Below, one piece after another: positions 55,388-56,116 of a DNA stretch of 64,000 nt (position 1 is its first letter; every line of letters starts with the position of its first letter). Origin of the DNA: Tilletiaria anomala UBC 951 (Eukaryota; Basidiomycota; Exobasidiomycetes; Georgefischeriales; Tilletiariaceae); the NCBI RefSeq assembly GCF_000711695.1, contig NW_013547014.1, positions 210,331 to 274,330 on the forward strand, in the 5' to 3' direction. A program made the position numbers and the translations under genes. The notes beneath the pieces are model-generated. The model did not search any database. It had not been told where the DNA came from and saw nothing but the letters and a program-made list of their open reading frames with translations.

Positions 55388-56116
55388 TCACCAACGACGG
55401 TACAGCAGGAACCTGCCATTGAGCGTGATCTTCACGCGGTCTCCCTTTGGGTCTTCAACCTTTTTGACGTGACCTTGAAAGTCGATCGCACTCATGATGC
55501 CGTCGCCGAATTTCTCGTGGATCATGTGCTCAAGAGGGTAGCCGTAGACGACAAGCACTTCATAAAGGCGGTACAGGACGGGCTCTGAGGTGGACGTGTA
55601 CATGTGGGCAATGTGGGGAGCCGCAGGGTTCAACAAAGGTTAGCGATCAGCTCATTCAAGCATACAGAATCGACAAGCACAGACTTTCGCGATGCGGGGG
55701 CATGGGCATGCACCAGCAGACACGCACCTTTAGGTGGAAACTCGCCAAGACCACGATGCGGCCAGTAGCTCTCGCCCAATGACTTTTCGAGGACCTTTCA
55801 GTGGATATCAAGGCACCGAGACAACTTTTTCAGGTCCTCCGGTGCCGGTTTTGCTTGGCCGTAGAAGCTGCACGCGGACAGAGTAGAAATCGTGTTGGGA
55901 CAATCAAGCTCATCTGACGCGGAAGTGCACAGCAACGATACGATCGTTTGCTTTGCAGTCTCACATTGCAGCAGTGTACCATTCGTCCCTCCCAATCTCC
56001 TTAGCAATCTTCTCGAACGTCAGATCCTTCGTCGCCTTGGCGGCGTGGAGACTCGTGAAGATGGGCGACAGCCCTTGCAGGATGGTGGGCATCTGAATCT
56101 GCGAGGAAGACGACAT
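55388..56116 (-). pseudogene. cynS: Cyanase (cyanate lyase) gene with one in-frame TGA
   Basis: Cyanase converts cyanate and bicarbonate to ammonia and CO2. Exons (minus) 56116-55965, 55867-55728 and 55584-55388 match the whole fungal cyanase: MSSSSQIQMPT, AAKATKDLTFEKIAKEIGRD, then TAAIFYGQAKPAPEDLKKL (junction in the Ile codon), CLDIH, a stop, KVLEKSLGESYWPHRGLGEF, PPKEPVLYRLYEVLVVYGYP (junction in the Glu codon), HEKFGDGIMSAIDF and GDRVKITLNGRFL. The Arg and Glu of YRLYEVL and the Ser of GIMSAI, the known catalytic residues, are intact. The only break is TGA at codon 74 (55800-55798), which removes the whole catalytic half. Both introns keep good GT-AG sites and phase, and no alternative splice keeping frame avoids the stop. 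A single CGA-to-TGA change would explain it. Full length would be 162 codons. Confidence 0.85.

What the first reader, a model, noticed from the sequence alone, without database searches (positions are those of the whole stretch)
55388..56116. Cyanase gene intact except for a single in-frame TGA at codon 74
Both introns, the N-terminal helical domain, the catalytic Arg/Glu/Ser motifs and the C terminus are well preserved. Yet one TGA (55800-55798) sits between CLDIH and KVLEKS. The pattern fits a very recent loss of cyanate detoxification by one CGA-to-TGA change, a strain-specific allele, or a read-through case. The next codon is AAG, not the CTA context known for fungal TGA read-through, so loss is more likely. 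Alternative splicing that skips the stop and keeps frame was not found.
Basis: partly seen in the sequence, partly recalled or inferred. Interest (0 to 1): 0.75.

Follow-up and report, generated by a model that had tools for sequence, protein, structure and literature searches.

The report
Fungal cyanase gene with one stop
A fungal gene for the cyanate-detoxifying enzyme cyanase looks whole except for one stop signal that cuts the protein off before its active site, so it is most likely a recently broken copy, an ordinary kind of gene loss.

Summary
On the minus strand, 56116-55388, lies a three-exon fungal cyanase gene with one in-frame TGA at codon 74 of 162 (55800-55798), a normal terminal TGA, and no frameshift or other stop. 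Read with X at the stop it scores as cyanase (TIGR00673, 153.9 bits, cut-off 113.3). Arg103, Glu106, Ser129 and Ala130, the counterparts of tested active-site residues, lie after the TGA, so the 73-residue product should be inactive. Best reading: a nonsense allele or young pseudogene.

The earlier codon cannot be told: position 74 is among the most variable columns, with Arg in 0 of 83 relatives. "Very recent" is only bounded: zero further lesions fits up to roughly 3-7% neutral divergence. In-frame splices that drop the stop do exist (53), but 0 of 53 has the signals of the six introns compared. Context TGA-AAG and ordinary folding (z -0.61) argue against read-through. A charge reversal at an otherwise invariant lysine (position 116) may hint at relaxed constraint, weakly. 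No reads, sister strains or genome were available, so base error or a polymorphic allele stays open.

The parts
55965..56116 (-). Cyanase exon 1 (ATG at 56116)
55868..55964 (-). Intron 1, 97 nt, GTGAGA...GCAG
55728..55867 (-). Cyanase exon 2, holding the premature stop
55798..55800 (-). Premature TGA, codon 74, followed by AAG
55585..55727 (-). Intron 2, 143 nt, GTGCGT...TCAG
55388..55584 (-). Cyanase exon 3 with the C-terminal catalytic domain and the terminal TGA; Arg103 55570-55568, Glu106 55561-55559, Ser129 55492-55490, Ala130 55489-55487
55529..55531 (-). Codon 116, Glu where the 83 aligned relatives have Lys

Best explanation
A real nonsense change in a fungal cyanase gene. Translation stops after 73 residues, before the whole C-terminal catalytic domain, so this allele should make no active enzyme. 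The rest of the gene (start, two introns, frame, catalytic residues, natural end) is still in place, so it is either a young pseudogene or a strain-specific null allele. Shown: the stop, the otherwise open frame, intron signals and position of the catalytic residues. Inferred: that the base is real, that the transcript is spliced as modelled, and that no other gene copy supplies the enzyme.
For: One stop and no other lesion in 489 nt; strong family match on both sides of the stop; the residues shown by mutation to matter in T. lanuginosus cyanase (PMC7801690 passages) map to 103, 106, 129, 130, all after the stop; stop context TGA-AAG, not the UGA-CU that drives read-through in Ustilago maydis (PMC4207609 passages); folding after the stop like shuffled sequence, z -0.61; 0 of 53 bypass splices has the expected signals; other genes checked in part are open: GH47 over profile positions 1-442 of 455, sugar transporter over four introns up to its fifth donor, glutaminase A across a normal 106-nt intron.
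Against: No second lesion, and 23 of 25 invariant columns kept, so the gene looks as if it was under selection until very lately, or still is. One wrong base in the assembly would give the same picture, and no reads were available. Glu at 116 and other unusual residues might be species-specific and not decay: T. lanuginosus also departs at 2 of 25 columns when left out in the same way.
Confidence: 0.78

Rival explanations
1. The TGA is a base-calling, consensus or assembly error, and the gene is intact.
For: A single substitution with nothing else wrong is what one wrong base would look like. Neither reads nor another assembly could be inspected (no genome held).
Against: The conserved genes checked in part elsewhere in the window show no frameshift or stray stop, so the sequence does not look error-rich.
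Confidence: 0.13
2. The stop is recoded: ribosomal read-through or mRNA editing gives some full-length cyanase.
For: The downstream frame, intron 2 and catalytic residues are intact. Position 74 tolerates many residues (13 different ones among 83 relatives), so whatever is inserted there might be accepted. UGA read-through and premature-stop editing are both known in fungi.
Against: Context is AAG, not CU. No unusual RNA structure in the 70 nt after the stop. Premature-stop editing was described in ascomycetes and, by the 2020 review PMC7306014 (passages), not reported in basidiomycetes, which had been examined in Polyporales only. Trp, Arg and Cys occur at position 74 in 0 of 83 relatives. 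PMC4207609 states that fungi lack the selenocysteine machinery (passage).
Confidence: 0.06
3. An alternative splice form removes the stop in frame.
For: 53 such joins exist on paper; the smallest with a GT donor is 55816-55769 (48 nt, loses 16 codons, the stop among them).
Against: Of the 53, 8 use GT, 2 have GT with G at +5, 1 has a YAG acceptor and 0 has GT, +5 G and YAG together, while all 6 introns compared do. The products lose part of the N-terminal domain that relatives have. The enumeration covered single joins of 40-400 nt only.
Confidence: 0.03

Closest known systems
Fungal cyanase (cyanate hydratase, EC 4.2.1.104), e.g. Thermomyces lanuginosus Tl-Cyn (PDB 6xgt)
   Same: Matches over residues 21-161 at E 3.8e-39, 55% identity; tested active-site residues conserved
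   Different: One in-frame stop at codon 74; some unusual residues at conserved columns
Cyanate lyase of Pseudozyma flocculosa (peptides in PMC2830954, identified against an Ustilago maydis entry)
   Same: Peptide LYEVLVVYGYPLK followed by H matches the window in 12 of 13 residues, and the next residue is also H; DPVLYR matches in 5 of 6
   Different: Lys at position 116 there, Glu here; that protein was detected by mass spectrometry, so that gene works as far as making protein
Fungal UGA read-through genes (UGA CU context, PMC4207609)
   Same: Stop is UGA in a fungal metabolic gene
   Different: Context is AAG; the stop interrupts the enzyme itself and does not precede a C-terminal targeting extension
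Nonsense alleles and young unitary pseudogenes (general knowledge)
   Same: One premature stop, otherwise preserved gene
   Different: Nothing found; absence of another copy and sister-strain state untested

Membership tests
Cyanase (cynS) | Cyanate lyase C-terminal domain | tested here: met
   PF02560, 109.6 bits against cut-off 25, in the read-through with X
Cyanase (cynS) | Full-length family score | tested here: met
   TIGR00673 153.9 bits against cut-off 113.3; NF002773 149.3 against 150, just below; N-terminal Pfam model PF21291 21.1 against 27.1, below
Cyanase (cynS) | Active-site Arg, Glu, Ser, Ala | tested here: met
   103, 106, 129, 130 match R101, E104, S127, A128 of Tl-Cyn
Cyanase (cynS) | Uninterrupted reading frame giving an active decamer | tested here: not met
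   TGA at codon 74; decamer and activity not testable
Fungal UGA read-through gene | UGA followed by CU | tested here: not met
   TGA-AAG; motif from PMC4207609 passages
Alternative genetic code (TGA as sense) | Several conserved genes with in-frame TGA | tested here: not met
   The cyanase itself ends in TGA at the family's natural C terminus; parts of GH47, sugar transporter and glutaminase A read without TGA
Unitary pseudogene | No functional copy elsewhere in the genome; intact orthologues in sister species | not testable with these tools
   No genome held; no second copy inside the 64-kb window

The most novel reading that the evidence does not exclude
The stop is a conserved, conditionally suppressed UGA inside a catalytic enzyme of a smut-like fungus, placed at a position that tolerates many residues, so that cyanase level is set by read-through or by an undescribed kind of mRNA editing.
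Probability: 0.03. Interest if true: 0.75.

Novelty: new member of a known kind. Interest (0 to 1): 0.17.

Why it matters
If real, it is a case of fungal cyanase loss caught at an early stage. Cyanase is missing from many ascomycete yeasts, and there presence of the gene did not predict growth on cyanate: two species with the gene did not grow on it, while six species without it grew strongly and three variably (PMC6292966, abstract and passages). A young null allele would fit weak or patchy selection on this gene, but it changes no concept.

Tried and rejected
Tried without result: own-genome search (none held); single-protein scans of prokaryote and viral contigs (no relative confirmed); tRNA and Rfam scans of the window (nothing reported); a second cyanase copy in the window (only the three exons, then weak hits at E 1.1 and above).

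Considered and rejected: an alternative genetic code (see membership test); selenocysteine (Cys in 0 of 83 relatives at the column, and no such machinery in fungi according to PMC4207609); dating the loss by decay of conserved residues, which was inconclusive. For that last test: of 54 columns at least 95% conserved in the 82 loci, the window keeps 42 and T. lanuginosus 36. Each departs at 2 of 25 invariant columns when left out. 30 of 143 window residues are seen in no other row, against 18 of 137 for T. lanuginosus and 17 of 140 for L074. Close relatives of the window are missing from the set, which by itself raises its count. Mean identity of the 82 loci to the window is 37% before the stop (residues 19-73) and 55% after it; for T. 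lanuginosus it is 62% before and 49% after. So there is no consistent sign of faster decay on one side.

Literature: seven searches. Those for cyanase with pseudogene (11 papers), cyanate lyase with basidiomycetes (2) and cyanase with Ustilago (2) listed no title or abstract start on this case. Only listings were seen, except for passages of PMC7801690, PMC4207609, PMC6292966, PMC2830954 and PMC7306014. No paper was read whole.

Full report
Observation. The gene is on the minus strand. Splicing at GTGAGA/GCAG and GTGCGT/TCAG gives a 489-nt CDS with one premature stop, TGA at codon 74 (55800-55798), and a terminal TGA at codon 163.

Identity. With X at the stop, the conceptual protein matches the cyanate lyase C-terminal domain (PF02560, E 6.2e-32, residues 94-160), NCBIfam cynS (TIGR00673, 153.9 bits, residues 19-162) and the solved cyanase 6xgt (E 3.8e-39, residues 21-161; 55% identity). 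I take 6xgt to be the Thermomyces lanuginosus enzyme of PMC7801690; the tool gives only the molecule name, and the match to that paper is recalled. Two models fall short: the N-terminal Pfam model (21.1 against 27.1 bits) and NF002773 (149.3 against 150 bits). The residues whose mutation abolished or strongly reduced activity in the T. lanuginosus enzyme (Arg101, Ser127, Glu104, Ala128; passages) correspond by alignment and spacing to 103, 129, 106 and 130, all after the stop. A 73-residue product therefore lacks the whole active site. That paper also places the active site between dimers of a decamer.

Host. No genome is held for the window. Families of the genes around point to a fungus: Vps4-associated Vfa1, glutaminase A, LIM-binding, forkhead, GH47, sugar transporter, indoleamine dioxygenase. 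A peptide of the cyanate lyase of Pseudozyma flocculosa, LYEVLVVYGYPLK followed by H (PMC2830954, passage), matches the window in 12 of 13 residues. That P. flocculosa is a smut relative is recalled; an Ustilaginomycotina-type host is my inference.

Relatives. No fungal genome collection was available. By title most are cyanobacteria, and four loci come from one Pseudanabaena biceps assembly. Two IMG/VR loci (identical to each other) and T. lanuginosus make 83 rows beside the window; 81 of the 84 rows are distinct. At position 74 the 83 have E 25, P 15, A 13, T 10, Q 4, S 4, K 3, V 2, L 2, G 2, I 1, N 1, D 1; by entropy it is the 8th most variable of 152 columns. Of 25 columns invariant in the 83, the window keeps 23, with Glu for Lys at 116 and Arg for Lys at 155. 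The P. flocculosa peptide also has Lys at 116. T. lanuginosus, left out in the same way, also departs at 2 of 25, so this is only a hint of relaxed constraint.

Age. With no further stop or frameshift in the CDS, and assuming 0.05-0.15 indels per substitution, three further lesions would be expected at 0.032-0.074 substitutions per site. The pseudogene, if it is one, is young, but 'very recent' cannot be narrowed further here.

Ways round the stop. Single joins of 40-400 nt that remove the TGA and keep the frame to the natural end number 53. Eight use GT, two have GT with G at +5, one has a YAG acceptor, and none combines these. The two cyanase introns and the four introns checked in the neighbouring sugar transporter do; a 106-nt glutaminase A intron at 28871-28976 does too. 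Read-through in U. maydis depends on UGA CU (PMC4207609 passages); here it is UGA AA. The 70 nt after the stop fold like shuffled sequence (z -0.61; 52 of 200 shuffles fold at least as well). Editing of premature stops is described in ascomycetes; in basidiomycetes, examined in Polyporales only by 2020, premature-stop correction was not reported (PMC7306014 passages).

Sequence quality. GH47 is open over profile positions 1-442 of 455, the sugar transporter from its ATG to its fifth donor, and glutaminase A across the junction checked. The window does not look error-rich, but one wrong base cannot be excluded without reads.

Conclusion. Nonsense allele or young pseudogene of a fungal cyanase (0.78); then base error (0.13), recoding (0.06), alternative splicing (0.03). 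These weights are my judgement. The case is ordinary in kind.

Noticed in passing
58603-59075 (+), in ORF 58510-59664: About six copies of a 78-bp (26-residue) tandem repeat in an open frame, just before what weakly resembles the start of an MFS transporter (Pfam MFS_1, E 0.0089, below cut-off).
   Followed up: partly
42024-49790: A 7.8-kb stretch with few and short ORFs (longest wholly inside 160 aa) and mostly lower GC, around 0.47-0.51, without long repeats.
   Followed up: partly
55531-55529 (-), codon 116 of the conceptual cyanase; also codons 24 and 158: Glu where all 83 aligned relatives and the P. flocculosa peptide have Lys; His at 24 where 98% have Leu; Leu at 158 where 82% have Pro. 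Species-specific changes or early decay.
   Followed up: partly
50822-52505 (-): Sugar transporter gene next to the cyanase, with four introns of 66-100 nt that share GTG(A/C)G donors and CAG acceptors.
   Followed up: partly
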